NCBI GenBank assembly: GCA_029817715.1
Contig: JARUPY010000290.1
Span: 6,448,001-6,512,000, forward strand
Source of the DNA: Melastoma dodecandrum
Lineage: Eukaryota; Streptophyta; Magnoliopsida; Myrtales; Melastomataceae
Direction of reading: 5' to 3'
DNA length: 64,000 nt
Shown: positions 4,661 to 64,000 of the stretch, piece by piece
Layout: each line of letters starts with the position of its first letter
How positions within the stretch are numbered: the first letter of the stretch is position 1
Notes under the pieces: generated by a model
What the model saw: only the letters and a program-made list of their open reading frames with translations
The model's database searches: none
Told to the model about the DNA's origin: nothing
Made by a program: the position numbers and the translations under genes

Positions 4661-4736
4661 TTTGAGTCGTCCTCCCCGCCCCCTTTGCGTGGTCCTCCCT
4701 CCGATCGTCCGTTTGCACCGGACCCTGCGACCGTAA

Positions 4737-4830
4737 ATGGCGTCAGGTGAGATTGCATTGTCTTCGTCATCTTTTACGTGCTGTCCAGCAGAAGTGATGG
4801 CGTCAGGTGAGATTGCACTGTCTTCGTCGT
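4737..4830 (+). repeat. 60-bp offset duplication of the Ulp1 gene start
   Basis: ATGGCGTCAG followed by a GTGAG donor and about 25 more nearly identical bases occurs at 4737 and again at 4797. Each copy could act as a 10-base first coding exon splicing to the exon at 5032. Confidence 0.65.
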
Positions 4831-8904: not shown

Positions 8905-9164
8905 CTCAGACGCAAGATGTACCTTATGCTTTTTGATTTGGGTCCGATGTACAAAGCTGTTACGTCGTATATACATTTAGATGACGTTGTAATGTAGTTT
9001 ATATGTGGGGATGACTTCTAACCAGGGGCATGCATTTAGATATAAGCAGGAGCATGCAATTTTGAAACAGCAGGGGATGTAATTACTGTATAAACAAGGG
9101 ATGTCATGCCAGATTGATGTAATACTTTCACCACTGATTGAATGACAAGGGGTGAAGTTAAATA
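8905..9164. other. short spacer between convergent transposon genes
   Basis: AT-rich 260-bp spacer between the stop codons of the Ulp1-like gene and the transposase. It presumably holds both 3' UTRs. No further coding signal is seen. Confidence 0.5.
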
Positions 9165-11381
9165 TTACATATTCCACTGACCAAACACATAGTTATCATT
9201 ACAAAACTCATCCGATGTACCTTCACTACGCGGATTGACATCACAAAGGGTGTTGACACCATATTGTTTAGGAGATTGAGGATTGCCGAAATCCCTGCGC
9301 ATTTTGGATGACGTAAATACATATTCTTTGCCATCATCATCCGTCTTGTTACCTGCATCATCACCGCAACTGAGCTCCAAATCCGCCGTCCAACTTTCAA
9401 TTTGTTTCTGCAATTTACGGAATGAGTTCTCCGATTTCCCGGCCAAGAAGCACATACGTCTGCAAGATGTCATTAATATACCCTGGCGCAAATCATCAAC
9501 GTTCACACCGTTAGCCTGGTGTGAAAATAGAGCATCACTTGTTTTTTTGGCGTTAATTGTCCACCTTTGCTTGACAAGATGAGTAGGTATGGACAAGAAT
9601 CCTTCTATTTTGGCTACGTGGAATAGGTGGGAACATGGATAACCAAATGTCTCAAAATGTAAACAACTGCAGCTCAGTTGGATAGAAGACTTCGCAGATG
9701 TACATTGCACGCACCTATGCTCACCATCATAACACGACAGAGTGTACACCATGGCAATATTTCCGTCTAGTACATCTTTAACATAAAATTTTGATTCCTT
9801 CTCTATCTCAGCCTGAACTTTACGAAAAGACTTCATAGTATATATGCGACGCGCATCCTCCTCAAGTCGGCGCAGCATGGTAATAAGCCTTAAAGATTTC
9901 TAAGATGACTTGAAGTCCTCCTCATATTCCTTGTGACGAATATCTTCAACTGCACGCTCAAAATTGTGCACGAAATCATAAAGCTTATGATTTACATTCA
10001 CATATTCCTTCATATATGCATGCATCCTTTCGCACCGTTGAGTGCTTCTAAGCTCTGCCCAAAAATGTCCAACCAGATACGTTTGCCACCACATATGCCT
10101 GCAATCGTAAATCTGTTCTAGCCATTTGTAACTTATCGTACCTGTATTTGTCATTAAAGAAGTCCACGCTTCTTCAACTTCTTCGGATGGTCTACTATTA
10201 TACATAAAAGAGGAAATACGTCGTCGCATTTGTGCATCCTGTACACGGCGTGTTATGTTCCTGCTGAAATGCCAAAGGCATAACCTGTGCCTAGCATTTG
10301 GCCAAACTTCTCTCACAGATGCAATCATCGCCTTGTCGGCGTCAGTTACAACACTAATCGGGTGTTTTCCTCCCATGACCAAGGTATGTGTGCGCAATAG
10401 CCAAGTATAATCGGCAATGGTTTCAGAAGGCATCAAGGCAGCCCCAAAGACGGTTGTCTGATGATGATGATTCACACCCACGATGATGACCATTTGCATT
10501 CCATATTTGTTCGTCTTAAAAGTAGAGTCGAAAGCTATGACATCACCAAAACAGTGGTAATCAGCTATTGAAGTACTGTCCGCCCAATATATTCGACTCA
10601 CTTCATTCTTCTCGACAAATGTGTAAAAGGCCATACCCGTATCACTATTCCTCCTACACATAAGATATGCTAGCACAGAATCACAATCACCATTACTCCC
10701 AACTGAGTCTTCCTTAAGCTTCCTGTTATTGAGGTCCTTCATTAAGAAACCAACACGCGGATGTCCACCAGATACGTGTACAAGTAGGCGCATAATATCA
10801 CACTGTCTAAACCCAACTTCAAGCATTCGGGTTATAAATGTCATATCTTCGTCTGAAATGTTGCGCCTTTCTCGCATGAAATAAGACAGCCCATTACTCA
10901 CCATTTCATGATTGTGCTTCAACTGAAGAGCTACAAACTTCCATTCTCCAGTCTCTTCAACTCTAGCTTTGAAGAAACAATTGCAAGATGTCCTCATAGA
11001 TGCCCTCACCCGACTATTGGCCGTTAACATAGCTGAATCAGAACATACCCCTTCCCTTGAGCAAACCCACTTTCTCATGACGCATTCTCCGTTTCGCAGT
11101 TTCTGAAGATCCCTTTTCCTAATTGAAAATCCAAGCACCGTTGAATACATTTTAATGAACTCTTCAACTTCTTCGGCAGTACGAAATGACATAATCATCA
11201 ACTGATCTTCATTCATACCACTAAGTATATTGAGGAAGTCATTCGTATCCTGCTCACCTGCACACACATACGGCATTTAGTAGTCCCAAAGCCTTGGCTG
11301 CAAAATATAAAGCAAATATATGCATTAAGGTAGAAAGCATTTACCGAATGTTGCGTGCTCTTGGTTGAAGACAAATTCCAT
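9165..11381 (-). CDS. MuDR/FAR1-type transposase with in-frame TAG
   Basis: The reverse strand reads from ATG at 11381-11379 through an 87-bp intron (11344-11258) to TGA at 9165. An N-terminal FAR1-like zinc domain (CNCFFKARV ... KHNHEM) is followed by the MULE DDE core: first Asp in VIAFDSTFKTNKYG, second in VVTDADKAM, the LCLWHF zinc motif, and Glu in STQRCERMHAYMKEYV. The end carries a SWIM finger (SCSCLHFETFGYPCSHLFHV). The product would bind the inverted repeats and cut and paste the element. One TAG at 9902-9900 interrupts the frame between the DDE core and the SWIM part. Eight codons later (9878) the frame has an ATG, and both sides are otherwise open and family-like. It is therefore a recent nonsense change, a read-through site or a sequence error. 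More 5' exons may exist. Confidence 0.82.
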
Positions 11382-11399
11382 ATCTTCAAGAATGGAATG

Positions 11400-11939
11400 C
11401 GGCTCCACACCCTTGCATCCTAGGTTGAATGTATCACCAACTCATTGTAAGATACATCCAAGCACACATCCCGGTCGTCATTTACAGGCTGCAAAAAAAT
11501 ACATCGTAATGACAAATTGCTACGAGGCAATGCTGATGCAGATCAATCGTTCAGCAACATTCATTGTCAAAACTTGCAGATCACCTGCAGATCACCTGCA
11601 GCTCACCTGTGAAGTTCACAAATAACTTCACTAACACATTGGGAAGGGCAGGCATCACACTTTACTACGGCATTAACTTCCCATCGAAATCAAACCTAAC
11701 GGAGATTTACTTAAACCCAACAGCCGGAAGAATAACGTGCACAGAGGCGAATCTTCCTCTCAGCAACAACCATCGCCGTATTCGGATCCAGGAGTTGCTC
11801 GGACCTTAAATGGAAAATCCGACAGATCACAAAAGAATCACAGCTGCTGCATCCTCCTTAACAACCACAGCTGGTGCATCCGCCTTCGAGATAACCGCAT
11901 CTCCTACTACGTTACTCATGCGTCCTCCGAATCAAGCAA
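11400..11939. other. transposase 5' region inside the element
   Basis: Unique DNA between the transposase start and the right inverted repeat. A short direct repeat of GCAGATCACCT lies at about 11576-11600. A further 5' exon could lie here, but no convincing one was found. Forward open frames at 11737-12196 run into the GC-rich block of the inverted repeat and look like chance. Confidence 0.4.
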
Positions 11940-13026
11940 CTGCAGCACCGGCGAGAGGAATGCGGTCGGAGGGAAACTTCTCGGAGGGGACGCCGACCGC
12001 CGACGGTCGGAGGGGAGGGTCGGAGGGGACGCGCAAAGAAGCTGCTCGGAGGGGACGGTCGGAGGGGAGGACGTTCGTATGGCAACGACAATCGCAAAAG
12101 CAAAACGATGGGTTACTAACTAGGTTCGTAAATGATTTAGTAAAAATGAACGGGGGCATTTACGTAATTTCACACCAGCCAATGGTTAGTAATTAGGTTC
12201 GGAGTTCACTGTTAATTTTAGTAAATTACTAAACTATTCAGTAACGCGTTACTAAACCTAGCGGCGATTTACGAACAATTTTACTAAATCTTTACTAAAA
12301 GTTTCGAACTTTTACAAATATAATTAGTAATTTTTACTAAACTTGAACAGTTATTTCTTAGGCAAATTGTTAGTAATCGGATACTAACGGGGTTAGTAAA
12401 TCTCATTAGTAATTTACTAACCCCGTTAGTATCCGATTACTAACGTTACGAACCCTGTTAGTATCCGATTACTAACGTTACGAACCCCGTTAGTATCCGA
12501 TTACTAACGTTACTAACCCCGTTAGTATTCGATTACTAACAATTTTAGTAAAAACGTTAGTAATCGGATACTAACGGGGTTCGTAACGTTAGTAATCGGA
12601 TACTAACGGGGTTCGTAACGTTAGTAATCGGATACTAACGGGGTTAGTAAATTTCATTAGTAATTTACGAACCCCGTTAGTATCCGATTACTAACGTTAC
12701 TAACCCCGTTAGTATCCGATTACTAACGTTACTAACCCCGTTCGTATCCGATTACTACCGATTTTACGAATCAAGACAGATTTTTTAGTAAAAATGTTAG
12801 TAATCGGATACTAACGGGGTTAGTAACGTTAGTAAACGGGTACTAACGGGGTTAGTAAATTACTAATGAAATTTACTAACCCCGTTTGTATCCGATTACT
12901 AACAATTTTACTAAAAAAATGGTCTGTTTAGTACAATTTACAAAAAAAGCTAGTAAATTTTACTAACCGATTGATGAAATTTAGTAAAGCACGTAACGTT
13001 ACGTGCACGTAACGTTAGCCGCTTCC
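11940..13026 (-). repeat. right terminal inverted repeat
   Basis: Reverse complement of the left arm. It contains the GGTCGGAGGGG block (11965-12075), the 32-bp satellite in both orientations (about 12365-12900), the palindrome (12996-13015) and the tip (13016-13026). The outer tip differs from the left arm only at the third base (A for C). Confidence 0.88.
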
Positions 13027-48929: not shown

Positions 48930-50751
48930 ATGGAACAGAGCCTCTATTTAGAGGAGCCTTATTGCGGCTGGGAGGCTCCCCCTCTGCCTCTGAGGTCAGT
49001 GTCACCCTGTATTTCTTTTGTTATGAAAAATGAAAGATGGGGGGGATGATGCTGTTGTTGTTAATGGTCAGGATGTTCGTGGGGACATGGAATGTGGGAG
49101 GGAAGTCTCCCCACCCTGACCTCAACTTGATGGATTGGCTCAACCTTCATGATCCCGCCGACATTTATGTTCTCGGGTAAAAGAACGAGCCCTCCCCCCA
49201 AACTCTCTCTCTCTTCTTTCTATTTCTAATCCCTGGTACCAAATGGTGTAATGTGTTGGCAGTTTCCAAGAGATAGTCCCACTCAACCCAGGGAACGTCA
49301 TTGTTGGAGTGGACAAGGCTCCCGCCGCCAAATGGCTCTCCCTCATCTCCCATGCCCTCAACGGTTCCCCCTCTGTTTCCCCTGTTCACCTCCGGCCTAG
49401 GATTAGTTTCTCTGACCTCCTCTCCCTGGAGGACGACCATGACTTTGACATGCTCCTCAGATTCAAGTCCGATAGCCCCCTTGATTTTGATCCCTACGGA
49501 GACGAGGCAAGTTCGACCCCAAGCCCACCCTCCTCTTCGGGGAGGCTTCTTTATTGTCTGGCCGCGAGCAAGCAGATGGTTGGGCTGTTCCTTTGCCTTT
49601 GGGTGAGGGAGGACCTGATGCAACATGTTAGCGGTGTCCGGGTCTCCTGTGTGGGCACAGGAATCATGGGCTATCTTGGAAACAAGGTAAATACCCGATG
49701 AATACCGAGATAAATATCAACATTTCGGATAATTGGATAATCTTCTTCTAGTCTGATCAATGTTTCTTTGCGATGGAATTCGTGTGCTGTGCAGGGTTCG
49801 GTTTCAATGAGCATGACACTACACCGTACGAGTTTCTGCTTCGTGTGCACTCATTTGGCCTCCGGAGACAAGGAAGGAGATAAAGTGAGGAGGAATTCGG
49901 ATGTCGCCGAAATACTGAGGAGGACTAAGTTCCCTGCTTCCTCTCGGCTTCGTTTCCAACCGGAAAGCATCCTCCATCACGAGTAAGCCTCTTCCCTCGT
50001 TTTCGTAATAATATAAAGAGATCTTTACAGAAATTATGATTGCTATGAATTAGCAGCAAGATAATATGGCTGGGGGACTTGAATTACCGACTGGTGTCGA
50101 CCCGCGACGACACCAACGAACTGCTTCAGAGGAACAACTGGCAAGCTCTCTTACAGAAGGATCAGGTGAGAATACTAACAAATCGAGATGCCGTCTACCA
50201 AGAGTTCTTCTTAAGTGTCATATGGAGAGATTTTGCATAAACGGATGGCATTTTTTTTTGTGTGTTTGTGTGTATGGCAGCTGAAGATAGAGCAGAAGGC
50301 AGGGAGAGTGTTCAAGGGGTGGGAAGAAGGTATAATCAGCTTTGCTCCGACGTATAAGTACCTCACGGACTCAGATCGCTATGCAGTCCAGGTCAAGGAC
50401 AACAATGGCATTTCAAAGGAGAAGCCCCGCAACCCAGCATGGTAAAACCCAGTTACCCTGATCCCAGACCAAAATATGAAGATTTGGGATGTTGAGGTTG
50501 TTTGTTTTTTGGGCAGGTGTGATAGGATACTGTGGAAAGGGGAAGGGGTGAAGCAGATGTGGTACGGGAGGGGAGAGTACAGATTTTCAGACCACAGGCC
50601 CGTTCATTCCCTGTTCTATGTCCAGTCGGTACAACTTGGGAGGCCCATCATCAGTCCAAGGTTTAGATCCAGGGGAGGACCTGGATTGCTCTCCAGCAGC
50701 CTCCCTGGCTATAAAGTACGAGCCGGGGAGTGGTTTCCCATCCATCCCTAG
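48930..50751 (+). CDS. type I inositol polyphosphate 5-phosphatase
   Basis: Seven exons, 48930-48994, 49072-49176, 49263-49686, 49795-49982, 50057-50165, 50281-50441 and 50517-50751, give 428 aa. An in-frame TAA precedes the chosen ATG. The endonuclease/phosphatase fold is clear: [21 protein letters not shown] (metal Glu), [30 protein letters not shown] (catalytic Asp/Asn), PAWCDRILW and [11 protein letters not shown] (catalytic His). It removes the 5-phosphate from soluble inositol phosphates and perhaps phosphoinositides, damping Ca2+ and phosphoinositide signals. Its TAG stop (50749-50751) lies in the CTAG at which the downstream tandem duplication begins, so its 3' UTR has been copied into units 2 and 3 without the gene. 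At2g37440 is the probable Arabidopsis counterpart. Confidence 0.92.
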
Positions 50752-50995
50752 CTCTTTATGCTATGCTATGCTACTTACGAAGGGTGCTGTGCTACTTACC
50801 AACGGTGACTTTAAGATCAAAAGTTGGGGGTGTACATAAGGAGAGGATGATGATGAATGGGATGATTTTGTTTTTTGTAAAATCGCAGAGGATTTTGGAG
50901 TTGATAAAAAGTTATCCCCCTCCCAGAGTTTGTCTGTCTGACTTAAATAAACCGCTCTCTCTATTTCCGGGGTGGAGTTCAAAGGTTAAAAAAGA

Positions 50996-51083
50996 GTCAA
51001 AGTCAACCCTGCGTGCGACATTGCACAGGAAAACTCTCTTTCTTTCCTCGCTGTCTGGTCCCTCGTGACTGTGTCCAAGTCAA
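50996..51083 (+). promoter_or_regulatory. W-box cluster in the receptor-kinase promoter
   Basis: Three AGTCAA sites (TTGACT on the other strand) at about 50995-51000, 51001-51006 and 51078-51083 fit the WRKY W-box TTGAC(C/T). They lie 160-250 bp before the likely ATG and recur in units 2 and 3. WRKY binding is inferred and would suit a pathogen-responsive gene. Confidence 0.45.
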
Positions 51084-51244
51084 GTTTGTCCCAAAAGGAG
51101 GAGGTCCATCAAATCTTCTTCCCTGATTGCCGCCAATGTTGATTGATCTCTCATCCATCCCCCCCATACATAATTAATAATCTTTATCAGCCTTCCTTCC
51201 CACATCTTCCTCCTCTGATTCATTTCCCATTTCCAGCAGCAGCC

Positions 51245-53581
51245 ATGATTCTCCTTCTCCTCCTCTGCCTTATTCCCCCTTCCCTTTCCCAGAACATCTC
51301 CAGCTACACCTCCTCCAGCTCCCCATGGCTACCCACCTCCACCCAGTTCCTCCTCTCCCCAAACTCTGTCTTTGCCGCCTCCTTCCTGGCTTCCTCCTCC
51401 TCCAACTCCACCTTCTCCTTCTCCGTCTACTACCACAACCTCACCCCTACCACCGTCGTCTGGTCCTCCTCCCCCGTTCCCTCCTCCTCCTCCCTCTCCA
51501 TCTCCTCCTCCCCCTCTCTCCTCTACCTCAACACTTCCTCCGGCCGCAACGCCTTCCCAGGTAACACCTCCGCCTCCTCCTCCAACTCCATCGTCTCCCT
51601 CTCCCTTCGTGACGACGGCTGCCTCATTTTCGGGAGTGGCTGGCGGAGCTTCGACTACCCGACCGACACCTTCCTCCCCGGCCAGACCATGAATGGGACG
51701 AGGTTGGTCTCCCTGAACGGTAGGTTCTCCTTCGATGCCAAGGTCCTCACGTTCAATGACACCAATGTTTATTGGCCTGGATATAACGGGAAAAAGTTCC
51801 TTGAGCTCAGCCCTATCGGGGACATCGACCAGGAAGGTGGAGGATTGGTCATGTCGGCCGATTCCGGAGATTCCAGATTGAGGAGGGTGGTGCTTGGTAA
51901 TGATGGTAACCTTAGGATGTTCAGTTATCAGGATAATGTTTGGAACATGGTCTGGCAGGCTATTCCGGAACTGTGCCAGATTCATGGCTCCTGCGGTAAG
52001 AACTCTATCTGTTTGAGTGACGGCGCCAATTCGACCTACTGTGTTTGTCCCCCGGGGTTTCGTCCTATTTCGGATGGCAACTATGATTGCGAGCGGAAGA
52101 TCGAGATCACAAGTTTTGCCAATGCGAAGTTCCTGAGGCTAGACTATGTCAATTTCTCCGGTGGGAGTAACCAGACCAGTTTGAGCGTCAGCAATTTCAG
52201 TGACTGTCAGGCTAGATGCTTGGCTCAGTCCACCTGTGAGGGCTTCATGGTTAAGTACGACGGAAGCGGGTTCTGTGTTCTGCAGTTGGGTAGGCTCTTG
52301 TATGGATACTGGTCCACGGGGAACGAAGTAGCCATGTTCCTGATGGTGGATAAGCTTGAAACCGATCAGTCTAATTTCACTGGTTTAACGAGCTTGTTGG
52401 AGACTTCCTGTCCTGTCATCATTAGCTTGCCCTATCCACCTGGCAAATCCAGTGCCGATGCCAGGAACATTGCCATTGTGTGCACCTTGTTTGCTGCCGA
52501 GTTGATATCTGGGATGGCGTTTTTCTGGGCATTCCTGAAGAAGTATATAAAATACAGGAACATGGCTCAGACTCTCGGTCTCGAGTTGCTTCCTGCTGGA
52601 GGTCCAAAGCGGTTCACTTTGGCAGAGATCAAGGAGGCCACGAATGGGTTTTCCGATCCGATCGGGAAGGGTGGATTCGGTGACGTATACAAAGGGGAGT
52701 TGAGCGATAAGAGGGTTGTTGCCGTCAAGTGCCTGAAGAATGTCGCTGGCGGGGATGGGGAGTTTTGGGCAGAGGTTACAATCATTGCGAGGATGCACCA
52801 TCTCAATCTGGTGAGGCTGTGGGGATTTTGTGTCGAGAAGGGTCAGAGGATACTCGTATACGAGTACGTGCCTAACGGGTCCCTCGACAAGTTCTTGTTC
52901 CAGCACAACCGCAGCAGGAGCGAGGAAGACATGGGTGAGGTTGCCGGAGAGCGTAAACCCGTGCTCGATTGGGGCATCAGATACAGAATAGCGGTGGGAG
53001 TTGCTCGGGCGATTGCCTACCTGCACGAAGAATGCTTGGAGTGGGTCTTGCATTGCGACATCAAGCCCGAGAACATACTGTTGGGGGACGACTTCTGCCC
53101 CAAGATATCGGATTTCGGACTTGCCAAGCTGAGGAAGAAGGAAGACATGGTAAGCATGTCACGCATCAGGGGCACGAGAGGGTACATGGCCCCGGAGTGG
53201 GCGAAGACGGACCAAATAACTCCGAAGGCGGACGTGTACAGCTTCGGGATGGTGCTGCTGGAGCTGGTGAGTGGGGTGAGGAACTTTGAGATGCAGGGGT
53301 CACTGATGGACAGCGAGGACTGGTACTTCCCCGGGTGGGCGTTCGACAAGGCATTCAAGGAGATGAAGGTGGAGGACATCCTGGACCGTCAGATAAAGCA
53401 TGCGTACGACAACAGGGTACACCTGAAGCTGGTGGACAGGATGGTGAAGACGGCGATGTGGTGCCTGCAGGATAGGCCGGAGCTAAGGCCGTCGATGGGG
53501 AAGGTGGCAAAGATGCTGGAGGGGACGGTAGAGATTATGGAACCGAAGAAGCCGACCATATTCTATCTTGGGGATGAATAG
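51245..53581 (+). CDS. G-type lectin S-receptor-like kinase, copy 1
   Basis: Single exon. The ATG at 51245 is preferred to the in-frame ATG at 51143 because it starts directly with a signal peptide (MILLLLLCLIPPSLSQ), giving 778 aa. Order: Ser-rich B-lectin domain with SFDYPTDTFLPGQ (about 17-145); S-locus/EGF-like part with CQIHGSCGKNSIC (about 243-280); PAN-like domain (about 295-370); membrane helix IAIVCTLFAAELISGMAFFWAF (about 408-430); kinase from about 458, with GKGGFGDVYKG, VAVKCLK, LHCDIKPENILL and DFGLAKL. The catalytic loop is Cys-Asp, so it is a non-RD kinase, common among immune receptors. It would sit in the plasma membrane and sense an apoplastic ligand, which is unknown. It is intact and lacks introns, as is usual for the family. 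Confidence 0.93.
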   Translation: MILLLLLCLIPPSLSQNISSYTSSSSPWLPTSTQFLLSPNSVFAASFLASSSSNSTFSFSVYYHNLTPTTVVWSSSPVPSSSSLSISSSPSLLYLNTSSGRNAFPGNTSASSSNSIVSLSLRDDGCLIFGSGWRSFDYPTDTFLPGQTMNGTRLVSLNGRFSFDAKVLTFNDTNVYWPGYNGKKFLELSPIGDIDQEGGGLVMSADSGDSRLRRVVLGNDGNLRMFSYQDNVWNMVWQAIPELCQIHGSCGKNSICLSDGANSTYCVCPPGFRPISDGNYDCERKIEITSFANAKFLRLDYVNFSGGSNQTSLSVSNFSDCQARCLAQSTCEGFMVKYDGSGFCVLQLGRLLYGYWSTGNEVAMFLMVDKLETDQSNFTGLTSLLETSCPVIISLPYPPGKSSADARNIAIVCTLFAAELISGMAFFWAFLKKYIKYRNMAQTLGLELLPAGGPKRFTLAEIKEATNGFSDPIGKGGFGDVYKGELSDKRVVAVKCLKNVAGGDGEFWAEVTIIARMHHLNLVRLWGFCVEKGQRILVYEYVPNGSLDKFLFQHNRSRSEEDMGEVAGERKPVLDWGIRYRIAVGVARAIAYLHEECLEWVLHCDIKPENILLGDDFCPKISDFGLAKLRKKEDMVSMSRIRGTRGYMAPEWAKTDQITPKADVYSFGMVLLELVSGVRNFEMQGSLMDSEDWYFPGWAFDKAFKEMKVEDILDRQIKHAYDNRVHLKLVDRMVKTAMWCLQDRPELRPSMGKVAKMLEGTVEIMEPKKPTIFYLGDE

Positions 53582-54255
53582 AAGAAAACACAGGAAGATG
53601 AAGTGTGTGTTGTTACGATCAACCATTGATTTTTGGAGGATCCTTCAAAAGTTTGGATTATATTGGATTGTGGTGTTATTGTAGTAGTTCAGTTACCAAA
53701 CGATGAAGAGGAGGGAGGGATGATGATGCACTTCCACCCCCTTTCTACAGGAGTTGTCTCTTTGGAAACCGTTTGCAGGATATACTTTTTTCTTTTGATC
53801 ATGTTACGATCAAAATCACATCATCGTAACCCCAATTGGGAGGGAAAACGGGGGAAGGCCGCCGCCAGCCACGAGAGACAAACAAACGCAAGTGGACGTG
53901 GCCTTTTTCCTATCCTCTTGGTAAGAGTCAACTATTCAATGTACAGAATACGACATCCCAACCCCCCTCCTCCGCCGGGTACTTGACTTGATCTTCAAGT
54001 GATTCGCCAAAAAAAAAAAAAAGAAGAGGAAAAGAAGGTGTGGGGGGAAGCGGCTAACGTGCCGTTAACGGCACGTTACGTGAGGTGTACTAATTTCGAC
54101 CCCGATTTAGTACAATGTACTAACTCGGTTAGTACATTTTGAAATTACTAATGATGTACTAACACTGTAGTTAGTACAGTGTACTAAGTGGTACTGTTTT
54201 TGTACTAGTAATGATTAGTACAATGTACTAATAGGAACTGTTCTTGTACTAGTAA

Positions 54256-54958
54256 TGTACAAGTGTACTAGTTGGTACGAAACAGGAACAGTAATCGTTA
54301 GTACACTGTACATATGTACACTGTACTAGTGTACTAGTTGGTACGAAACAGGAACAGTAATCGTTAGTACACTGTACATATGTACACTGTACTAGTGTAC
54401 TAGTTGGTACGAAACAGGAACAGTAATCGTTAGTACACTGTACATATGTACACTGTACTAGTGTACTAGTTGGTACGAAACAGGAACAGTAATCGTTAGT
54501 ACACTGTACATATGTACAGGGTACTAGTATACTAGTTGGTACGAAACAGGAACAGTAATCGTTAGTACACTGTACATATGTACAGTGTACTAGTGTACTA
54601 GTTGGTACGAAACATGAACAGTAATCGTTAGTACACTGTACATATGTACAGTGTACTAGTGTACTAGTTGGTACGAAACAGGAACAGTAACTATTAGTAC
54701 AGTGTACATATGTACAGTGTACTAGTGTACTAATTGGTACGAAACAGGAACAGTAACTATTAGTACACTGTACATATGTACACTGTACTAGTGTACTAGT
54801 TGGTACGAAACAGGAACAGTACTCGTTAGTACACTGTACATGTGTACACTGTACTAGTGTACTAGTTGGTACGAAACAGGAACAGTAATCGTTAGTACAC
54901 TGTACATATGTACACTGTACTAGTGTACTAGTTGGCACGAAACAAGAATAGAAACATG
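54256..54958 (-). repeat. 66-bp GTAC-rich satellite, left array, unit 1
   Basis: About ten 66-bp monomers. Each has ACTAGTGTACTAGTTGGTAC, GAAACAGGAACAGTAATCG and the palindromic core TGTACATATGTACA, with six GTAC tetranucleotides per monomer. Because 66 is divisible by three and the unit lacks stops in one frame, a long spurious reverse open frame with a 22-residue repeat results. Confidence 0.9.
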
Positions 54959-55231
54959 TACTAACACTGTCGATGGTACACCATTAGTAATTAATAGTTA
55001 CGGAAATTATCGGTGTGTACTAATGTAACTGGTTCATTTGGTAGTTCAATACTAATACAACCAAGCCAAAAACCGAACCTAATGTTGGGTGTGAATTTAC
55101 CATTTAGGACACTGCCATCCGACTTTTTTCTCGTTGTCTTCCTCTCGAAGCCTCGTCACAATCTCGCAGATACAAGTCCCCGAAGTGAAGAGTTATCCAA
55201 ACCTTGGAGGTGGAATCCCGTCCGCGCTTTC

Positions 55232-55567
55232 AGTACACTAGTACACTGTACATATGTACAGTGTACTAACCGTCACTGTTCATGTTTCGTACCAACAAGT
55301 ACACTAGTACACTGTACATATGTACAGTGTACTAACCGTCACTGTTCATGTTTCGTACCAACTAGTACACTAGTACAGTGTACATATGTACAGTGTACTA
55401 ACGAGTACTGTTCCTGTTTCGTACCAACTAGTACACTAGTACAGTGTACATATGTACAGTGTACTAATAGTTACTGTTCCTGTTTCGTACCAATTAGTAC
55501 ACTAGTACACTGTACATATGTACAGTGTACTAATAGTTACTGTTCCTGTTTCGTACCAACTAGTACA
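55232..55567 (+). repeat. 66-bp satellite, right inverted array, unit 1
   Basis: Five monomers in the opposite orientation to the left array, forming a kilobase-scale inverted repeat around the 270-bp interior. The last monomer is cut at ACTAG and joins phosphatase 3' UTR sequence. Confidence 0.9.
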
Positions 55568-56064
55568 CTAGCTCTTTATGCTATGCTATGCTACTTACGA
55601 AGGGTGCTGTGCTACTTACCAACGGTGACTTTAAGATCAAAAGTTGGGGGTGTACATAAGGAGAGGATGATGATGAATGGGATGATTTTGTTTTTTGTAA
55701 AATCGCAGAGGATTTTGGAGTTGATAAAAAGTTATCCCCCTCCCAGAGTTTGTCTGTCTGACTTAAATAAACCGCTCTCTCTATTTCCGGGGTGGAGTTC
55801 AAAGGTTAAAAAAGAGTCAAAGTCAACCCTGCGTGCGACATTGCACAGGAAAACTCTCTTTCTTTCCTCGCTGTCTGGTCCCTCGTGACTGTGTCCAAGT
55901 CAAGTTTGTCCCAAAAGGAGGAGGTCCATCAAATCTTCTTCCCTGATTGCCGCCAATGTTGATTGATCTCTCATCCATCCCCCCCATACATAATTAATAA
56001 TCTTTATCAGCCTTCCTTCCCACATCTTCCTCCTCTGATTCATTTCCCATTTCCAGCAGCAGCC

Positions 56065-58401
56065 ATGATTCTCCTTCTCCTCCTCTGCCTTATTCCCCCT
56101 TCCCTTTCCCAGAACATCTCCAGCTACACCTCCTCCAGCTCCCCATGGCTACCCACCTCCACCCAGTTCCTCCTCTCCCCAAACTCTGTCTTTGCCGCCT
56201 CCTTCCTGGCTTCCTCCTCCTCCAACTCCACCTTCTCCTTCTCCGTCTACTACCACAACCTCACCCCTACCACCGTCGTCTGGTCCTCCTCCCCCGTTCC
56301 CTCCTCCTCCTCCCTCTCCATCTCCTCCTCCCCCTCTCTCCTCTACCTCAACACTTCCTCCGGCCGCAACGCCTTCCCAGGTAACACCTCCGCCTCCTCC
56401 TCCAACTCCATCGTCTCCCTCTCCCTTCGTGACGACGGCTGCCTCATTTTCGGGAGTGGCTGGCGGAGCTTCGACTACCCGACCGACACCTTCCTCCCCG
56501 GCCAGACCATGAATGGGACGAGGTTGGTCTCCCTGAACGGTAGGTTCTCCTTCGATGCCAAGGTCCTCACGTTCAATGACACCAATGTTTATTGGCCTGG
56601 ATATAACGGGAAAAAGTTCCTTGAGCTCAGCCCTATCGGGGACATCGACCAGGAAGGTGGAGGATTGGTCATGTCGGCCGATTCCGGAGATTCCAGATTG
56701 AGGAGGGTGGTGCTTGGTAATGATGGTAACCTTAGGATGTTCAGTTATCAGGATAATGTTTGGAACATGGTCTGGCAGGCTATTCCGGAACTGTGCCAGA
56801 TTCATGGCTCCTGCGGTAAGAACTCTATCTGTTTGAGTGACGGCGCCAATTCGACCTACTGTGTTTGTCCCCCGGGGTTTCGTCCTATTTCGGATGGCAA
56901 CTATGATTGCGAGCGGAAGATCGAGATCACAAGTTTTGCCAATGCGAAGTTCCTGAGGCTAGACTATGTCAATTTCTCCGGTGGGAGTAACCAGACCAGT
57001 TTGAGCGTCAGCAATTTCAGTGACTGTCAGGCTAGATGCTTGGCTCAGTCCACCTGTGAGGGCTTCATGGTTAAGTACGACGGAAGCGGGTTCTGTGTTC
57101 TGCAGTTGGGTAGGCTCTTGTATGGATACTGGTCCACGGGGAACGAAGTAGCCATGTTCCTGATGGTGGATAAGCTTGAAACCGATCAGTCTAATTTCAC
57201 TGGTTTAACGAGCTTGTTGGAGACTTCCTGTCCTGTCATCATTAGCTTGCCCTATCCACCTGGCAAATCCAGTGCCGATGCCAGGAACATTGCCATTGTG
57301 TGCACCTTGTTTGCTGCCGAGTTGATATCTGGGATGGCGTTTTTCTGGGCATTCCTGAAGAAGTATATAAAATACAGGAACATGGCTCAGACTCTCGGTC
57401 TCGAGTTGCTTCCTGCTGGAGGTCCAAAGCGGTTCACTTTGGCAGAGATCAAGGAGGCCACGAATGGGTTTTCCGATCCGATCGGGAAGGGTGGATTCGG
57501 TGACGTATACAAAGGGGAGTTGAGCGATAAGAGGGTTGTTGCCGTCAAGTGCCTGAAGAATGTCGCTGGCGGGGATGGGGAGTTTTGGGCAGAGGTTACA
57601 ATCATTGCGAGGATGCACCATCTCAATCTGGTGAGGCTGTGGGGATTTTGTGTCGAGAAGGGTCAGAGGATACTCGTATACGAGTACGTGCCTAACGGGT
57701 CCCTCGACAAGTTCTTGTTCCAGCACAACCGCAGCAGGAGCGAGGAAGACATGGGTGAGGTTGCCGGAGAGCGTAAACCCGTGCTCGATTGGGGCATCAG
57801 ATACAGAATAGCGGTGGGAGTTGCTCGGGCGATTGCCTACCTGCACGAAGAATGCTTGGAGTGGGTCTTGCATTGCGACATCAAGCCCGAGAACATACTG
57901 TTGGGGGACGACTTCTGCCCCAAGATATCGGATTTCGGACTTGCCAAGCTGAGGAAGAAGGAAGACATGGTAAGCATGTCACGCATCAGGGGCACGAGAG
58001 GGTACATGGCCCCGGAGTGGGCGAAGACGGACCAAATAACTCCGAAGGCGGACGTGTACAGCTTCGGGATGGTGCTGCTGGAGCTGGTGAGTGGGGTGAG
58101 GAACTTTGAGATGCAGGGGTCACTGATGGACAGCGAGGACTGGTACTTCCCCGGGTGGGCGTTCGACAAGGCATTCAAGGAGATGAAGGTGGAGGACATC
58201 CTGGACCGTCAGATAAAGCATGCGTACGACAACAGGGTACACCTGAAGCTGGTGGACAGGATGGTGAAGACGGCGATGTGGTGCCTGCAGGATAGGCCGG
58301 AGCTAAGGCCGTCGATGGGGAAGGTGGCAAAGATGCTGGAGGGGACGGTAGAGATTATGGAACCGAAGAAGCCGACCATATTCTATCTTGGGGATGAATA
58401 G
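56065..58401 (+). CDS. G-type lectin S-receptor-like kinase, copy 2
   Basis: The 778-aa product is identical in translation to copy 1, so all motifs hold (signal peptide, lectin, EGF/PAN, membrane helix, non-RD kinase). Its promoter, with three W-boxes, now lies about 250 bp downstream of the satellite array instead of behind the phosphatase gene. Expression may therefore differ despite the identical protein. An in-frame ATG at 55963 is the alternative start. Confidence 0.93.
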   Translation: MILLLLLCLIPPSLSQNISSYTSSSSPWLPTSTQFLLSPNSVFAASFLASSSSNSTFSFSVYYHNLTPTTVVWSSSPVPSSSSLSISSSPSLLYLNTSSGRNAFPGNTSASSSNSIVSLSLRDDGCLIFGSGWRSFDYPTDTFLPGQTMNGTRLVSLNGRFSFDAKVLTFNDTNVYWPGYNGKKFLELSPIGDIDQEGGGLVMSADSGDSRLRRVVLGNDGNLRMFSYQDNVWNMVWQAIPELCQIHGSCGKNSICLSDGANSTYCVCPPGFRPISDGNYDCERKIEITSFANAKFLRLDYVNFSGGSNQTSLSVSNFSDCQARCLAQSTCEGFMVKYDGSGFCVLQLGRLLYGYWSTGNEVAMFLMVDKLETDQSNFTGLTSLLETSCPVIISLPYPPGKSSADARNIAIVCTLFAAELISGMAFFWAFLKKYIKYRNMAQTLGLELLPAGGPKRFTLAEIKEATNGFSDPIGKGGFGDVYKGELSDKRVVAVKCLKNVAGGDGEFWAEVTIIARMHHLNLVRLWGFCVEKGQRILVYEYVPNGSLDKFLFQHNRSRSEEDMGEVAGERKPVLDWGIRYRIAVGVARAIAYLHEECLEWVLHCDIKPENILLGDDFCPKISDFGLAKLRKKEDMVSMSRIRGTRGYMAPEWAKTDQITPKADVYSFGMVLLELVSGVRNFEMQGSLMDSEDWYFPGWAFDKAFKEMKVEDILDRQIKHAYDNRVHLKLVDRMVKTAMWCLQDRPELRPSMGKVAKMLEGTVEIMEPKKPTIFYLGDE

Positions 58402-58865
58402 AAGAAAACACAGGAAGATGAAGTGTGTGTTGTTACGATCAACCATTGATTTTTGGAGGATCCTTCAAAAGTTTGGATTATATTGGATTGTGGTGTTATT
58501 GGAGTAGTTCAGTTACCAAACGATGAAGAGGAGGGAGGGATGATGATGCACTTCCACCCCCTTTCTACAGGAGTTGTCTCTTTGGAAACCGTTTGCAGGA
58601 TATACTTTTTTCTTTTGATCATGTTACGATCAAAATCACATCATCGTAACCCCAATTGGGAGGGAAAACGGGGGAAGGCCGCCGCCAGCCACGAGAGACA
58701 AACAAACGCAAGTGGACGTGGCCTTTTTCCTATCCTCTTGGTAAGAGTCAACTATTCAATGTACAGAATACGACATCCCAACCCCCCTCCTCCGCCGGGT
58801 ACTTGACTTGATCTTCAAGTGATTCGCCAAAAAAAAAAAAAAGAAGAGGAAAAGAAGGTGTGGGG

Positions 58866-60428
58866 GGAAGCGGCTAACGTGCCGTTAACGGCACGTTACG
58901 TGAGGTGTACTAATTTCGACCCCGATTTAGTACAATGTACTAACTTGGTTAGTACATTTTGAAATTACTAATGATGTACTAACACTGTAGTTAGTACAGT
59001 GTACTAAGTGGTACTGTTTTTGTACTAGTAATGATTAGTACAATGTACTAATAGGAACTGTTCTTGTACTAGTAATGTACAAGTGTACTAGTTGGTACGA
59101 AACAGGAACAGTAATCGTTAGTACAATGTACATATGTACACTGTACTAGTGTACTAGTTGGTACGAAACAGGAACAGTAATCGTTAGTACAATGTACATA
59201 TGTACACTGTACTAGTGTACTAGTTGGTACGAAACAGGAACAGTAATCGTTAGTACACTGCACATATGTACACTGTACTAGTGTACTAGTTGGTACGAAA
59301 CAGGAACAGTAATGGTTAGTACAGTGTACATATGTACACTGTACTAGTGTACTAGTTGGTACGAAGCAGGAACAGTAACAGTTAGTACAGTGTACATATG
59401 TACAGTGTACTAGTGTACTAGTTGGTACGAAACATGAACAGTAATCGTTAGTACACTGTACATATGTACACTGTACTAGTGTACTAGTTGGTACGAAACA
59501 GGAACAGTAACTATTAGTACAGTGTACATATGTACAGTGTACTAGTGTACTAGTTGGTACGAAACAGGAACAGTAACTATTAGTACAGTGTACATATGTA
59601 CAGTGTACTAGTGTACTAGTTGGTACGAAACAGGAACAGTAATCGTTAGTACAGTGTACATATGTACAGTGTACTAGTGTACTAGTTGGTACGAAACAGG
59701 AACAGTAACTATTAGTACACTGTACATATGTACACTGTACTAGTGTACTAGTTGGTACGAAGCAGGAATAGAAACATGTACTAACACTGTCGATGGTACA
59801 CCATTAGTAATTAGTAGTTACGGAAATTATCGGTGTGTACTAATGTAACTGGTTCATTTGGTAGTTCAATACTAATACAACCAAGCCAAAAACCGAACCT
59901 AATGTTGGGTGTGAATTTACCATTTAGGACACTGCCATCCGACTTTTTTCTCGTTGTCTTCCTCTCGAAGCCTCGTCACAATCTCGCAGATACAAGTCCC
60001 CGAAGTGAAGAGTTATCCAAACCTTGGAGGTGGAATCCCGTCCGCGCTTTCAGTACACTAGTACACTGTACATATGTACAGTGTACTAACCGTCACTGTT
60101 CATGTTTCGTACCAACAAGTACACTAGTACACTGTACATATGTACAGTGTACTAACCGTCACTGTTCATGTTTCGTACCAACTAGTACACTAGTACAGTG
60201 TACATATGTACAGTGTACTAACGAGTACTGTTCCTGTTTCGTACCAACTAGTACACTAGTACAGTGTACATATGTACAGTGTACTAATAGTTACTGTTCC
60301 TGTTTCGTACCAATTAGTACACTAGTACACTGTACATATGTATAGTGTACTAATAGTTACTGTTCCTGTTTCGTACCAACTAGTACACTAGTACAGTGTA
60401 CTAGTGTACTAGTTGGTACACTAGTACA
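58866..60428 (+). mobile_element. non-autonomous Mutator-like element, right end missing (unit 2)
   Basis: Same tip, palindrome, left array (about 59076-59778), interior and right array (about 60052-60428) as in unit 1. The left array has the same monomer number but many base changes. The right array ends in a 41-bp fold-back before the CTAG junction. Confidence 0.75.
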
Positions 60429-60925
60429 CTAGCTCTTTATGCTATGCTATGCTACTTACGAAGGGTGCTGTGCTACTTACCAACGGTGACTTTAAGATCA
60501 AAAGTTGGGGGTGTACATAAGGAGAGGATGATGATGAATGGGATGATTTTGTTTTTTGTAAAATCGCAGAGGATTTTGGAGTTGATAAAAAGTTATCCCC
60601 CTCCCAGAGTTTGTCTGTCTGACTTAAATAAACCGCTCTCTCTATTTCCGGGGTGGAGTTCAAAGGTTAAAAAAGAGTCAAAGTCAACCCTGCGTGCGAC
60701 ATTGCACAGGAAAACTCTCTTTCTTTCCTCGCTGTCTGGTCCCTCGTGACTGTGTCCAAGTCAAGTTTGTCCCAAAAGGAGGAGGTCCATCAAATCTTCT
60801 TCCCTGATTGCCGCCAATGTTGATTGATCTCTCATCCATCCCCCCCATACATAATTAATAATCTTTATCAGCCTTCCTTCCCACATCTTCCTCCTCTGAT
60901 TCATTTCCCATTTCCAGCAGCAGCC

Positions 60926-63262
60926 ATGATTCTCCTTCTCCTCCTCTGCCTTATTCCCCCTTCCCTTTCCCAGAACATCTCCAGCTACACCTCCTCCAGC
61001 TCCCCATGGCTACCCACCTCCACCCAGTTCCTCCTCTCCCCAAACTCTGTCTTTGCCGCCTCCTTCCTGGCTTCCTCCTCCTCCAACTCCACCTTCTCCT
61101 TCTCCGTCTACTACCACAACCTCACCCCTACCACCGTCGTCTGGTCCTCCTCCCCCGTTCCCTCCTCCTCCTCCCTCTCCATCTCCTCCTCCCCCTCTCT
61201 CCTCTACCTCAACACTTCCTCCGGCCGCAACGCCTTCCCAGGTAACCCCTCCGCCTCCTCCTCCACCTCCATCGTCTCCCTCTCCCTTCGTGACGACGGC
61301 TGCCTCATTTTCGGGAGTGGCTGGCGGAGCTTCGACTACCCGACCGACACCTTCCTCCCCGGCCAGACCATGAATGGGACGAGGTTGGTCTCCCTGAACG
61401 GTAGGTTCTCCTTCGATGCCAAGGTCCTCACGTTCAATGACACCAATGTTTATTGGCCTGGATATAACGGGAAAAAGTTCCTTGAGCTCAGCCCTATCGG
61501 GGACATCGACCAGGAAGGTGGAGGATTGGTCATGTCGGCCGATTCCGGAGATTCCAGATTGAGGAGGGTGGTGCTTGGTAATGATGGTAACCTTAGGATG
61601 TTCAGTTATCAGGATAATGTTTGGAACATGGTCTGGCAGGCTATTCCGGAACTGTGCCAGATTCATGGCTCCTGCGGTAAGAACTCTATCTGTTTGAGTG
61701 ACGGCGCCAATTCGACCTACTGTGTTTGTCCCCCGGGGTTTCGTCCTATTTCGGATGGCAACTATGATTGCGAGCGGAAGATCGAGATCACAAGTTTTGC
61801 CAATGCGAAGTTCCTGAGGCTAGACTATGTCAATTTCTCCGGTGGGAGTAACCAGACCAGTTTGAGCGTCAGCAATTTCAGTGACTGTCAGGCTAGATGC
61901 TTGGCTCAGTCCACCTGTGAGGGCTTCATGGTTAAGTACGACGGAAGCGGGTTCTGTGTTCTGCAGTTGGGTAGGCTCTTGTATGGATACTGGTCCACGG
62001 GGAACGAAGTAGCCATGTTCCTGATGGTGGATAAGCTTGAAACCGATCAGTCTAATTTCACTGGTTTAACGAGCTTGTTGGAGACTTCCTGTCCTGTCAT
62101 CATTAGCTTGCCCTATCCACCTGGCAAATCCAGTGCCGATGCCAGGAACATTGCCATTGTGTGCACCTTGTTTGCTGCCGAGTTGATATCTGGGATGGCG
62201 TTTTTCTGGGCATTCCTGAAGAAGTATATAAAATACAGGAACATGGCTCAGACTCTCGGTCTCGAGTTGCTTCCTGCTGGAGGTCCAAAGCGGTTCACTT
62301 TGGCAGAGATCAAGGAGGCCACGAATGGGTTTTCCGATCCGATCGGGAAGGGTGGATTCGGTGACGTATACAAAGGGGAGTTGAGCGATAAGAGGGTTGT
62401 TGCCGTCAAGTGCCTGAAGAATGTCGCTGGCGGGGATGGGGAGTTTTGGGCAGAGGTTACAATCATTGCGAGGATGCACCATCTCAATCTGGTGAGGCTG
62501 TGGGGATTTTGTGTCGAGAAGGGTCAGAGGATACTCGTATACGAGTACGTGCCTAACGGGTCCCTCGACAAGTTCTTGTTCCAGCACAACCGCAGCAGGA
62601 GCGAGGAAGACATGGGTGAGGTTGCCGGAGAGCGTAAACCCGTGCTCGATTGGGGCATCAGATACAGAATAGCGGTGGGAGTTGCTCGGGCGATTGCCTA
62701 CCTGCACGAAGAATGCTTGGAGTGGGTCTTGCATTGCGACATCAAGCCCGAGAACATACTGTTGGGGGACGACTTCTGCCCCAAGATATCGGATTTCGGA
62801 CTTGCCAAGCTGAGGAAGAAGGAAGACATGGTAAGCATGTCACGCATCAGGGGCACGAGAGGGTACATGGCCCCGGAGTGGGCGAAGACGGACCAAATAA
62901 CTCCGAAGGCGGACGTGTACAGCTTCGGGATGGTGCTGCTGGAGCTGGTGAGTGGGGTGAGGAACTTTGAGATGCAGGGGTCACTGATGGACAGCGAGGA
63001 CTGGTACTTCCCCGGGTGGGCGTTCGACAAGGCATTCAAGGAGATGAAGGTGGAGGACATCCTGGACCGTCAGATAAAGCATGCGTACGACAACAGGGTA
63101 CACCTGAAGCTGGTGGACAGGATGGTGAAGACGGCGATGTGGTGCCTGCAGGATAGGCCGGAGCTAAGGCCGTCGATGGGGAAGGTGGCAAAGATGCTGG
63201 AGGGGACGGTAGAGATTATGGAACCGAAGAAGCCGACCATATTCTATCTTGGGGATGAATAG
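60926..63262 (+). CDS. G-type lectin S-receptor-like kinase, copy 3
   Basis: 778 aa from ATG at 60926 (in-frame ATG at 60824 upstream). It differs from copies 1 and 2 by two substitutions in the lectin domain, near residues 107 and 114: GNTSASSSNS becomes GNPSASSSTS. The first removes an Asn-X-Ser/Thr glycosylation site. The base changes are A to C at about 61247 and 61267. Kinase motifs are unchanged, so the copy is predicted to be functional. Confidence 0.93.
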   Translation: MILLLLLCLIPPSLSQNISSYTSSSSPWLPTSTQFLLSPNSVFAASFLASSSSNSTFSFSVYYHNLTPTTVVWSSSPVPSSSSLSISSSPSLLYLNTSSGRNAFPGNPSASSSTSIVSLSLRDDGCLIFGSGWRSFDYPTDTFLPGQTMNGTRLVSLNGRFSFDAKVLTFNDTNVYWPGYNGKKFLELSPIGDIDQEGGGLVMSADSGDSRLRRVVLGNDGNLRMFSYQDNVWNMVWQAIPELCQIHGSCGKNSICLSDGANSTYCVCPPGFRPISDGNYDCERKIEITSFANAKFLRLDYVNFSGGSNQTSLSVSNFSDCQARCLAQSTCEGFMVKYDGSGFCVLQLGRLLYGYWSTGNEVAMFLMVDKLETDQSNFTGLTSLLETSCPVIISLPYPPGKSSADARNIAIVCTLFAAELISGMAFFWAFLKKYIKYRNMAQTLGLELLPAGGPKRFTLAEIKEATNGFSDPIGKGGFGDVYKGELSDKRVVAVKCLKNVAGGDGEFWAEVTIIARMHHLNLVRLWGFCVEKGQRILVYEYVPNGSLDKFLFQHNRSRSEEDMGEVAGERKPVLDWGIRYRIAVGVARAIAYLHEECLEWVLHCDIKPENILLGDDFCPKISDFGLAKLRKKEDMVSMSRIRGTRGYMAPEWAKTDQITPKADVYSFGMVLLELVSGVRNFEMQGSLMDSEDWYFPGWAFDKAFKEMKVEDILDRQIKHAYDNRVHLKLVDRMVKTAMWCLQDRPELRPSMGKVAKMLEGTVEIMEPKKPTIFYLGDE

Positions 63263-63726
63263 AAGAAAACACAGGAAGATGAAGTGTGTGTTGTTACGAT
63301 CAACCATTGATTTTTGGAGGATCCTTCAAAAGTTTGGATTATATTGGATTGTGGTGTTATTGTAGTAGTTCAGTTACCAAACGATGAAGAGGAGGGAGGG
63401 ATGATGATGCACTTCCACCCCCTTTCTACAGGAGTTGTCTCTTTGGAAACCGTTTGCAGGATATACTTTTTTCTTTTGATCATGTTACGATCAAAATCAC
63501 ATCATCGTAACCCCAATTGGGAGGGAAAACGGGGGAAGGCCGCCGCCAGCCACGAGAGACAAACAAACGCAAGTGGACGTGGCCTTTTTCCTATCCTCTT
63601 GGTAAGAGTCAACTATTCAATGTACAGAATACGACATCCCAACCCCCCTCCTCCGCCGGGTACTTGACTTGATCTTCAAGTGATTCGCCAAAAAAAAAAA
63701 AAAGAAGAGGAAAAGAAGGTGTGGGG

Positions 63727-64000
63727 GGAAGCGGCTAACGTGCCGTTAACGGCACGTTACGTGAGGTGTACTAATTTCGACCCCGATTTAGTACAATGTA
63801 CTAACTTGGTTAGTACATTTTGAAATTACTAATGATGTACTAACACTGTAGTTAGTACAGTGTACTAAGTGGTACTGTTTTTGTACTAGTAATGATTAGT
63901 ACAATGTACTAATAGGAACTGTTCTTGTACTAGTAATGTACAAGTGTACTAGTTGGTACGAAACAGGAACAGTAATCGTTAGTACACTGTACATATGTAC
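63727..64000 (+). mobile_element. non-autonomous Mutator-like element, cut by window end (unit 3)
   Basis: Left tip, 20-bp palindrome and first satellite monomer are present. If the duplication model is right, the last unit of the locus should carry the intact right tip and a target duplication related to the bases just before 63727. Confidence 0.7.

What the first reader, a model, noticed from the sequence alone, without database searches (positions are those of the whole stretch)
50748..64000. Receptor-kinase gene amplified in tandem through a junction between a transposon satellite and a neighbouring stop codon
Three head-to-tail units carry a lectin receptor kinase plus the left part of a Mutator-like element. 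Each internal junction (55568 and 60429) joins the element's inverted satellite to the phosphatase 3' UTR at CTAG. That CTAG includes the phosphatase TAG stop (50749-50751), and ACTAG occurs twice in every satellite monomer. This points to microhomology-mediated duplication seeded by the satellite, followed by expansion. Gene and flanks are nearly identical between units, so it is very recent or homogenised. A transposon supplying palindromic satellites that amplify an immune-type receptor would be a distinct route to copy-number change.
Basis: partly seen in the sequence, partly recalled or inferred. Interest (0 to 1): 0.9.

Follow-up and report, generated by a model that had tools for sequence, protein, structure and literature searches.

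The report
Transposon-seeded receptor kinase gene array
A plant receptor-kinase gene has become four near-identical copies in a row through a faulty join inside the repetitive arm of a jumping gene that landed beside it, and another contig of the same genome still shows the older state of one gene copy and no jumping gene.

Summary
The array is real in the assembly and larger than the window shows. Four head-to-tail units start at 50748, 55568, 60429 and 65282 (last outside the window). Unit 4 ends with the whole 2,136-bp element, right tip and 9-bp target-site duplication included. The element is a foldback-type MULE: MULE tips, arms of 66-bp satellite, larger relatives, one with an open FAR1/MULE transposase frame. 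All three junctions join the right satellite arm to CTAG at the phosphatase TAG stop. Junctions 2 and 3 carry an extra 41 bp that tiles as successive template switches. Contig C80, colinear over 62 kb and probably the other haplotype, has one gene copy and an empty target site: insertion first, then amplification. Units differ by 0.08% outside the element and 2.8% in the left satellite. Best reading: a template-switch duplication started in the foldback arm, then expansion by unequal recombination. Transposon-linked tandem gene duplication is already known (Kochia EPSPS; maize Ac). New here: a single element, an internal satellite breakpoint, an empty-site allele in the same genome. New variant of a known kind.

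The parts
49252..50751 (+). 3' part of a phosphatase-like gene in several open pieces, ending in TAG 50749-50751
   Evidence: Pieces 49252-49698 and 50446-50748 hit Pfam PF22669 Exo_endo_phos2 (29.7 bits against cut-off 27; 23.2 bits, below cut-off); frame and stop. That it is an inositol polyphosphate phosphatase is recalled, not from a call.
50748..50751 (+). CTAG: left breakpoint of every unit, including the phosphatase TAG stop
50748..55567 (+). Unit 1 (4,820 bp)
51245..53581 (+). G-type lectin receptor-like kinase gene, unit 1, 778 aa in one open frame
   Evidence: Pfam B_lectin, S_locus_glycop, Pkinase above cut-off; PAN_2 just below cut-off; best protein hits At1g34300/At5g24080-like kinases of Punica, Syzygium, Psidium at 74-75% identity
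54037..54045 (+). Target-site duplication GGTGTGGGG, left copy; right copy at 70716-70724, outside the window
   Evidence: single copy at the empty site on C80
54046..54255 (+). Left tip and outer terminal inverted repeat (GGAAGCGGCTAACG...); its inner end holds two copies of a 44-bp repeat (54171-54257)
54256..54948 (+). Left satellite arm, 66-bp monomer, 10.5 copies
54956..55231 (+). Core of the element between the satellite arms
   Evidence: 98-100% copies at 7 other places in the genome
55232..55571 (+). Kept part of the right satellite arm, 5.2 of the 11.2 monomers of the intact arm in unit 4
55568..55571 (+). Junction 1, CTAG, simple form
55568..60428 (+). Unit 2 (4,861 bp); kinase 56065-58401; element left part from 58866
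60373..60432 (+). Junction 2, complex form: 47-nt foldback, then ACTAGTACACTAG, followed by CTCTTTATG
60429..64000 (+). Unit 3, running on to 65281 outside the window; kinase 60926-63262; element from 63727

Best explanation
A non-autonomous foldback MULE of 2,136 bp inserted 465 bp downstream of a single lectin receptor kinase gene. SHOWN in the assembly: tips, 9-bp target-site duplication, and the empty site with one gene copy on contig C80. Its two arms are inverted arrays of a 66-bp, partly self-complementary satellite that could fold into a long hairpin (inferred; only the 101 nt around junction 2 were folded). DNA synthesis through the right arm then stopped and switched template: in junctions 2 and 3 first into the opposite arm orientation, back again, and finally about 5 kb backwards to a CTAG at the phosphatase stop. 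From there the kinase gene and the element were copied again. SHOWN: the junction sequences and their tiling. INFERRED: the switching itself, and that fork stalling or gap repair in the arm set it off. The first direct duplication created 4.8 kb of homology, and unequal recombination raised the array to four units, copying the 41-bp-insert junction. Junction 1 most likely lost the 41 bp later, between 13-bp direct repeats. INFERRED. The satellites then diverged far faster than the gene, mostly by copying between monomers. SHOWN as pattern; conversion against polishing artefact is open. Likely effect: three to four usable kinase copies, each with the same 497 bp upstream of the ATG. INFERRED; expression was not examined.
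For: Four units with the whole element only in the last. Element family: TSDs GGTGTGGGG, CAAGAATGG, CTCCACAAC, ACTCTCTAT at the four insertions whose two ends I read, all four with 66-bp satellite arms; FAR1 and MULE Pfam domains in a 681-aa frame of the 7.2-kb copy on C125. Empty site and single copy on C80. 4-bp microhomology, 1.3-1.4% by chance, or 2.4% with the flank break given. Junction 2 tiles as right arm (32 bp), left-arm orientation (18 bp), right arm (13 bp), flank, and the 101-nt stretch around it folds as single-stranded DNA at -24.6 kcal/mol, z -6.5; junction 3 has the same insert. The five substitutions outside the element are each private to one unit, C80 agreeing with the majority.
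Against: One locus only: among 32 element positions that I count in the listing (40 rows; a lower bound, and it can show only duplications that include the core) this is the only close tandem array of cores. The other tandem duplication holding family members (C136, period 28.9 kb) ends 1.3 kb beyond the right tip, by eye not in satellite. A 4-bp match in one founding event is modest evidence. Junction 1 could be the older form. No reads or other individuals could be checked.
Confidence: 0.68

Rival explanations
1. Transposase-driven gap repair: the element was cut out of one sister and the gap was filled from the other; synthesis through the right arm slipped to CTAG, giving the same product with a cut rather than a stalled fork as trigger.
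For: The family looks recently active: cores 98-100% identical at 7 other places and an open transposase frame on C125. Gap filling with template switching is the model that PMC8277862 gives for most single-copy Pack-TIRs (passages read).
Against: That paper favours the transposition-independent form of gap filling and leaves only a small proportion to the excision-driven form. The footprint would be the same, so the sequence cannot separate the two. The intact element with matching TSDs in unit 4 needs complete repair.
Confidence: 0.25
2. Simple break joining by 4-bp microhomology (end joining between sister chromatids), with no replicative switching.
For: Junction 1 is a clean join with a shared CTAG.
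Against: Two of three junctions carry the same 41-bp insert, made of satellite pieces in alternating orientation. Its removal by slippage between 13-bp repeats is simpler than its later gain.
Confidence: 0.2
3. Alternative (reversed-ends) transposition, as with maize Ac.
For: A DNA transposon sits at the duplicated segment.
Against: The join lies inside the arm, 5.2 monomers into the right satellite, not at an element end, and carries no TSD. In PMC3744419 (passages read) the junctions lie next to the element and contain 8-bp TSDs.
Confidence: 0.03
4. Unequal crossing-over between two element copies that flanked the gene, as proposed for Kochia EPSPS.
For: Explains growth from two to four units once the first duplication existed.
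Against: Upstream of unit 1 no element copy was found: no 66-bp satellite before 54256 in the tandem-repeat scan and no match of the unit over 400 bp outside the array in 104 kb. C80 shows no element at the locus.
Confidence: 0.04
5. Assembly artefact: copy number wrong, or units created or merged by the assembler.
For: C80 starts with about 8 kb of indel-rich sequence, as in an unpolished noisy-read contig end. The 1-base loss in a C run of unit 4 and the monomer-like satellite variants could be polishing errors.
Against: Junctions and arms differ from one another (41 bp, 8 bp), three of four units carry private substitutions outside the element, and a separate contig shows the single-copy state with a clean 9-bp empty site.
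Confidence: 0.1

Closest known systems
Kochia scoparia EPSPS tandem array with a FHY3/FAR1-bearing mobile element (PMC6808082; passages read)
   Same: FAR1-coding, MULE-related element next to a tandemly duplicated gene; three to eight copies typical; a 7-bp identity between the element and the start of one repeat type; growth by unequal crossing-over proposed.
   Different: There two copies of a 16-kb element flank the segment and are held to have started it. Here one small non-autonomous element, a breakpoint inside its satellite arm, a template-switch footprint, and a 4.8-kb unit with one gene.
Foldback transposons with MULE features: Tm1 of root-knot nematodes (PMC3169594, abstract), FARE1 and MuTAnT of plants (PMC4486113, passages), and the foldback element Tetris of Drosophila virilis (PMC4079207, abstract)
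   Same: Long inverted repeats forming foldback structures; 9-bp TSDs and a Mutator-type (Phantom) transposase reported for Tm1; a mudrA-like transposase for MuTAnT; Tetris arms hold tandem repeats that seeded satellite arrays.
   Different: No sequence kinship was tested. In what I read of them, none reports a tandem gene array jointed inside the arm.
FoSTeST and gap-filling duplications at TIR elements, including Ssk-FB4 in Drosophila (PMC8277862, passages read)
   Same: Fork stalling and template switching in a repetitive TIR is the proposed cause of the gene copy; microhomology in at least one breakpoint of 190 (67.6%) Pack-TIRs.
   Different: There the gene copy is captured inside the element and moved; here the flanking gene is duplicated in place, outside the element.
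MULEs with multiple TIRs (PMC3310237, abstract and section 4.2 read)
   Same: Plant MULEs with tandemly repeated terminal sequence; replication slippage is discussed as a cause.
   Different: Duplicated whole TIRs rather than 66-bp satellites; no flanking gene amplified in what I read.

Membership tests
Mutator-like (MULE) superfamily, foldback type | 9-bp target-site duplication and an empty site without element | tested here: met
   GGTGTGGGG on both sides, single copy on C80; three relatives with other 9-bp TSDs
Mutator-like (MULE) superfamily, foldback type | Long inverted repeats built of internal tandem repeats | tested here: met
   66-bp satellite in both arms; 906 bp aligned in inverted orientation, 96-97% identical
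Mutator-like (MULE) superfamily, foldback type | MULE transposase in the family | tested here: met
   681-aa frame in the 7.2-kb C125 copy: PF10551 1.8e-26, PF03101 5.8e-17; no transposase in the short C603 copy
FoSTeS/MMBIR-type template-switch duplication | Microhomology at the join | tested here: met
   CTAG, 4 bp; 1.3-1.4% of random joins, 2.4% with the flank break given
FoSTeS/MMBIR-type template-switch duplication | Short templated inserts or serial switches at the join | tested here: met
   Junctions 2 and 3: 41 bp of satellite in alternating orientation (tiling done on junction 2); junction 1 lacks them
FoSTeS/MMBIR-type template-switch duplication | Dependence on replication or fork stalling | not testable with these tools
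   needs an experiment
Alternative (reversed-ends) transposition | Junction at an element end, with TSD | tested here: not met
   junction is inside the right arm
NAHR between two flanking elements (Kochia model) | Element copy at both borders of the segment | tested here: not met
   no satellite or element match upstream of unit 1 and none at the locus on C80

The most novel reading that the evidence does not exclude
The satellite arms of this foldback MULE family are general hot spots for template switching. Wherever a copy lands beside a gene it can seed direct tandem amplification of that gene within tens of thousands of generations, with the satellites themselves turning over about 36 times faster than the gene, so that insertion polymorphism feeds receptor-kinase copy number in the population.
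Probability: 0.15. Interest if true: 0.78.

Novelty: new variant of a known kind. Interest (0 to 1): 0.52.

Why it matters
Single, datable cases in which the states before and after a transposon-seeded gene amplification both survive in one genome are useful. Here the empty-site contig fixes the order, the junction keeps a readable switching record, and the gene is a receptor kinase whose copy number could matter to the plant. It makes the question whether foldback arms trigger tandem gene gain testable by population sequencing.

Tried and rejected
Rice origin was a first guess from genome size; the kinase's best hits (Punica, Syzygium, Psidium, 74-75%) point to a Myrtales-like plant without a close relative in the protein collection. 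Alternative transposition and two-element crossing-over were rejected on the junction position and the upstream border. I considered whether the seven other fragments of the kinase gene belong to the same process; they lie in an unrelated element of about 1 kb. I considered whether the C136 element pair is a second case; its right-hand break is by eye not in satellite, and an attempt to read its left break (compared) found no match, so that break is unlocated. Reading flanking-marker exchange into the divergence step at the array (0.1% left, 1.5% right) was dropped because such steps also occur elsewhere along the same contig. A genome-wide scan of element tips for further tandem cases could not be completed (see below). 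In checking this report against the calls I lowered the gap-repair rival from 0.30 to 0.25, because the paper cited for it favours the form without transposition.

Full report
OBSERVATION. The window is G000:C603:6448001-6512000 of an unnamed 373-Mb, 607-contig genome. The self-comparison gives direct repeats 50748-59139 against 55568-64000 (99.1%) and 50748-54319 against 60429-64000 (99.9%). I fetched the next 40 kb; coordinates above 64000 continue the window's count. A fourth unit starts at 65282. Unit lengths are 4,820, 4,861 and 4,853 bp; the fourth ends in the full element. The left tip GGAAGCGGC is at 54046 (68580 in unit 4), the right tip at 70715, and GGTGTGGGG stands on both sides, 54037-54045 and 70716-70724. 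The element in unit 4 is thus 2,136 bp. (The scripts and note 10 used 70714, one base short.)

GENES. The amplified gene (51245-53581) codes for 778 aa with B_lectin, S_locus_glycop and kinase domains above cut-off and PAN_2 just below it. Best hits are At1g34300/At5g24080-like kinases of Punica, Syzygium and Psidium, 74-75% identical; 559 of 7,991 scored candidates passed and 120 were listed. The frame is open in units 1-3 and on C80; unit 4 has lost one C of a CCCCC run and stops after 148 codons, possibly an assembly error. Two pieces of the upstream gene match Exo_endo_phos2, one above and one below the cut-off.

JUNCTIONS. All three joins end ...ACACTAG|CTCTTTATG; the undisturbed flank reads CCATCCATCCCTAGCTC, so CTAG is shared. 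Random joins between the right arm and three stretches of neighbouring sequence share 4 bp or more in 1.3-1.4% of 40,000 draws each, against 1.8% with the kinase gene as donor; with the flank break held at CTAG, 2.4% of arm positions match by 4 bp. Junctions 2 and 3 carry 41 more bases. They contain a 47-nt inverted repeat with one mismatch at its centre, and the 101-nt stretch around junction 2 folds at -24.6 kcal/mol, z -6.46, 0 of 200 shuffles as good. Greedy tiling of junction 2 with pieces of the element and flank gives 32 bp of right arm, 18 bp in left-arm orientation, 13 bp of right arm, then flank. Whether the middle piece was copied from the left arm or by the strand folding back on itself cannot be told. 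Junction 1 equals this minus 41 bp between 13-bp direct repeats; I take it as derived, but the reverse is not excluded. Unit 3 also lacks 8 bp in its right arm.

SINGLE-COPY ALLELE. A search of the genome with the kinase gene gives 27 matches; five are full-length, the four array copies and C80:26330-28730. C80 (238,633 bp) was compared over its first 62 kb. Apart from small length differences it is colinear with the window contig from 25886 to 54045 and from 70716 to 103647, with the 9-bp target present once. It is probably the other haplotype; a recent duplicate locus is not excluded, but either way it is the empty site. Divergence from the array contig is about 0.1% from 36 to 54 kb, 1.5% from 70.7 to 86 kb and patchy beyond; the first 8 kb or so of C80 are indel-rich. 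In the unit, C80 differs from all four copies by three substitutions, a 38-bp and a 2-bp length difference. The five substitutions within the array are each private to one unit (u2 one, u3 two, u4 two; two of u3 change an amino acid, one of u4 is silent), C80 agreeing with the majority; unit 4 has two 1-base length changes besides. Five changes in four copies of 3,297 bp are 3.8e-4 per lineage, about 54,000 generations at a recalled rate of 7e-9; errors would make it younger, and homogenisation older.

SATELLITES. Mean pairwise difference is 0.076% outside the element (5 variable of 3,297 sites), 2.76% in the left satellite (35 of 700), 1.07% in the kept right satellite (7 of 327), 0.18% in the core (1 of 276), 0.24% in the outer left repeat (1 of 210), columns with gaps left out. 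Of 44 minority variants in the left satellite, 33 sit in a 15-mer found elsewhere in the satellites, against 7.8% of 5,000 random substitutions. That fits copying between monomers; mis-polishing from other monomers would look the same.

ELEMENT FAMILY. The core has 40 listed matches (50 candidates, 40 scored); 7 places outside the array are 98-100% identical over the whole core, the others 82-85% or short. The terminal 215 bp has 353 candidates, of which 40 were scored. Both ends were read at four insertions, C603, C125, C331 and C589, with 9-bp TSDs and satellite arms at all four. The 7.2-kb C125 copy has a long open frame with FAR1 and MULE domains. Of 7,681 candidates 37 pass 1e-50; the top two are 35% and 37% identical.

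GENERALITY. Collapsing the listing by hand (the four array rows to one, five second partial core matches to their elements) leaves 32 element positions; only this one shows cores in close direct tandem. The listing would miss duplications that leave out the core, and I did not read the flanks of most of these copies. A pair on C136 lies in a 28.9-kb direct duplication whose right end is 1.3 kb past the element tip. So the evidence for a general satellite-driven process is one case. The planned tip scan stayed unanswered.

LITERATURE. Eight searches of an open-licence library. Closest is Kochia EPSPS (PMC6808082, passages): a FHY3/FAR1-bearing element, tandem copies, 7-bp identity between the element and a repeat start. 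Reversed-ends transposition (PMC3744419, passages) gives junctions at element ends with 8-bp TSDs, not seen here. Fork stalling and template switching at repetitive TIRs is proposed for flies (PMC8277862, passages). Foldback relatives: PMC3169594 and PMC4079207 (abstracts), PMC4486113 (passages), PMC3310237 (abstract and one section). I saw no report of a tandem gene array jointed inside a foldback arm in these listings, abstracts and passages; that is a statement about these searches only.

VERDICT. The array is as described but larger; the element is a foldback MULE; the order insertion then amplification is well supported; a template-switch start is the best reading of the junctions; the class of process is known. 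New variant of a known kind.

Noticed in passing
window 3641-13026: A second, larger MULE with related tips (GGCAGCGGCTAACG / GGAAGCGGCTAACG), a shared 10-bp flank TCACCCTTAC, 32-bp palindromic satellites in both arms and a minus-strand transposase (MULE and FAR1 Pfam domains in the first piece) split into two frames at about 9900.
   Followed up: partly
L029 4687-5760, L030 4549-5621, and five near-copies in L031-L035: Seven places hold a 5' piece of this same kinase gene (about window 50959-51155 plus 51319-51822, the second piece 87.5-95.2% alike) inside an unrelated element of about 1 kb, with TIRs of about 180 bp in L029 and L030: a Pack-MULE-like capture of the same gene.
   Followed up: partly
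C136: L041, L042: Two family members 28.9 kb apart in direct orientation lie in a tandem segmental duplication, flanks 98.6% identical, with a right-hand break by eye not in satellite.
   Followed up: partly
C80 against ext 54045/70716: Divergence between the two contigs steps from about 0.1% to about 1.5% at the array; this would fit exchange of flanking markers in an unequal crossover, but similar steps occur elsewhere.
   Followed up: no
unit 4, ext 66005 (equivalent of 51471): The fourth kinase copy has CCCC instead of CCCCC and a broken frame; pseudogene or assembly error.
   Followed up: no
about 71.9-78 kb in window count (L009/L010), minus strand: Large open frames with reverse-transcriptase-like sequence (by eye) just downstream of the array; retrotransposon or endogenous viral element, described only.
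   Followed up: no
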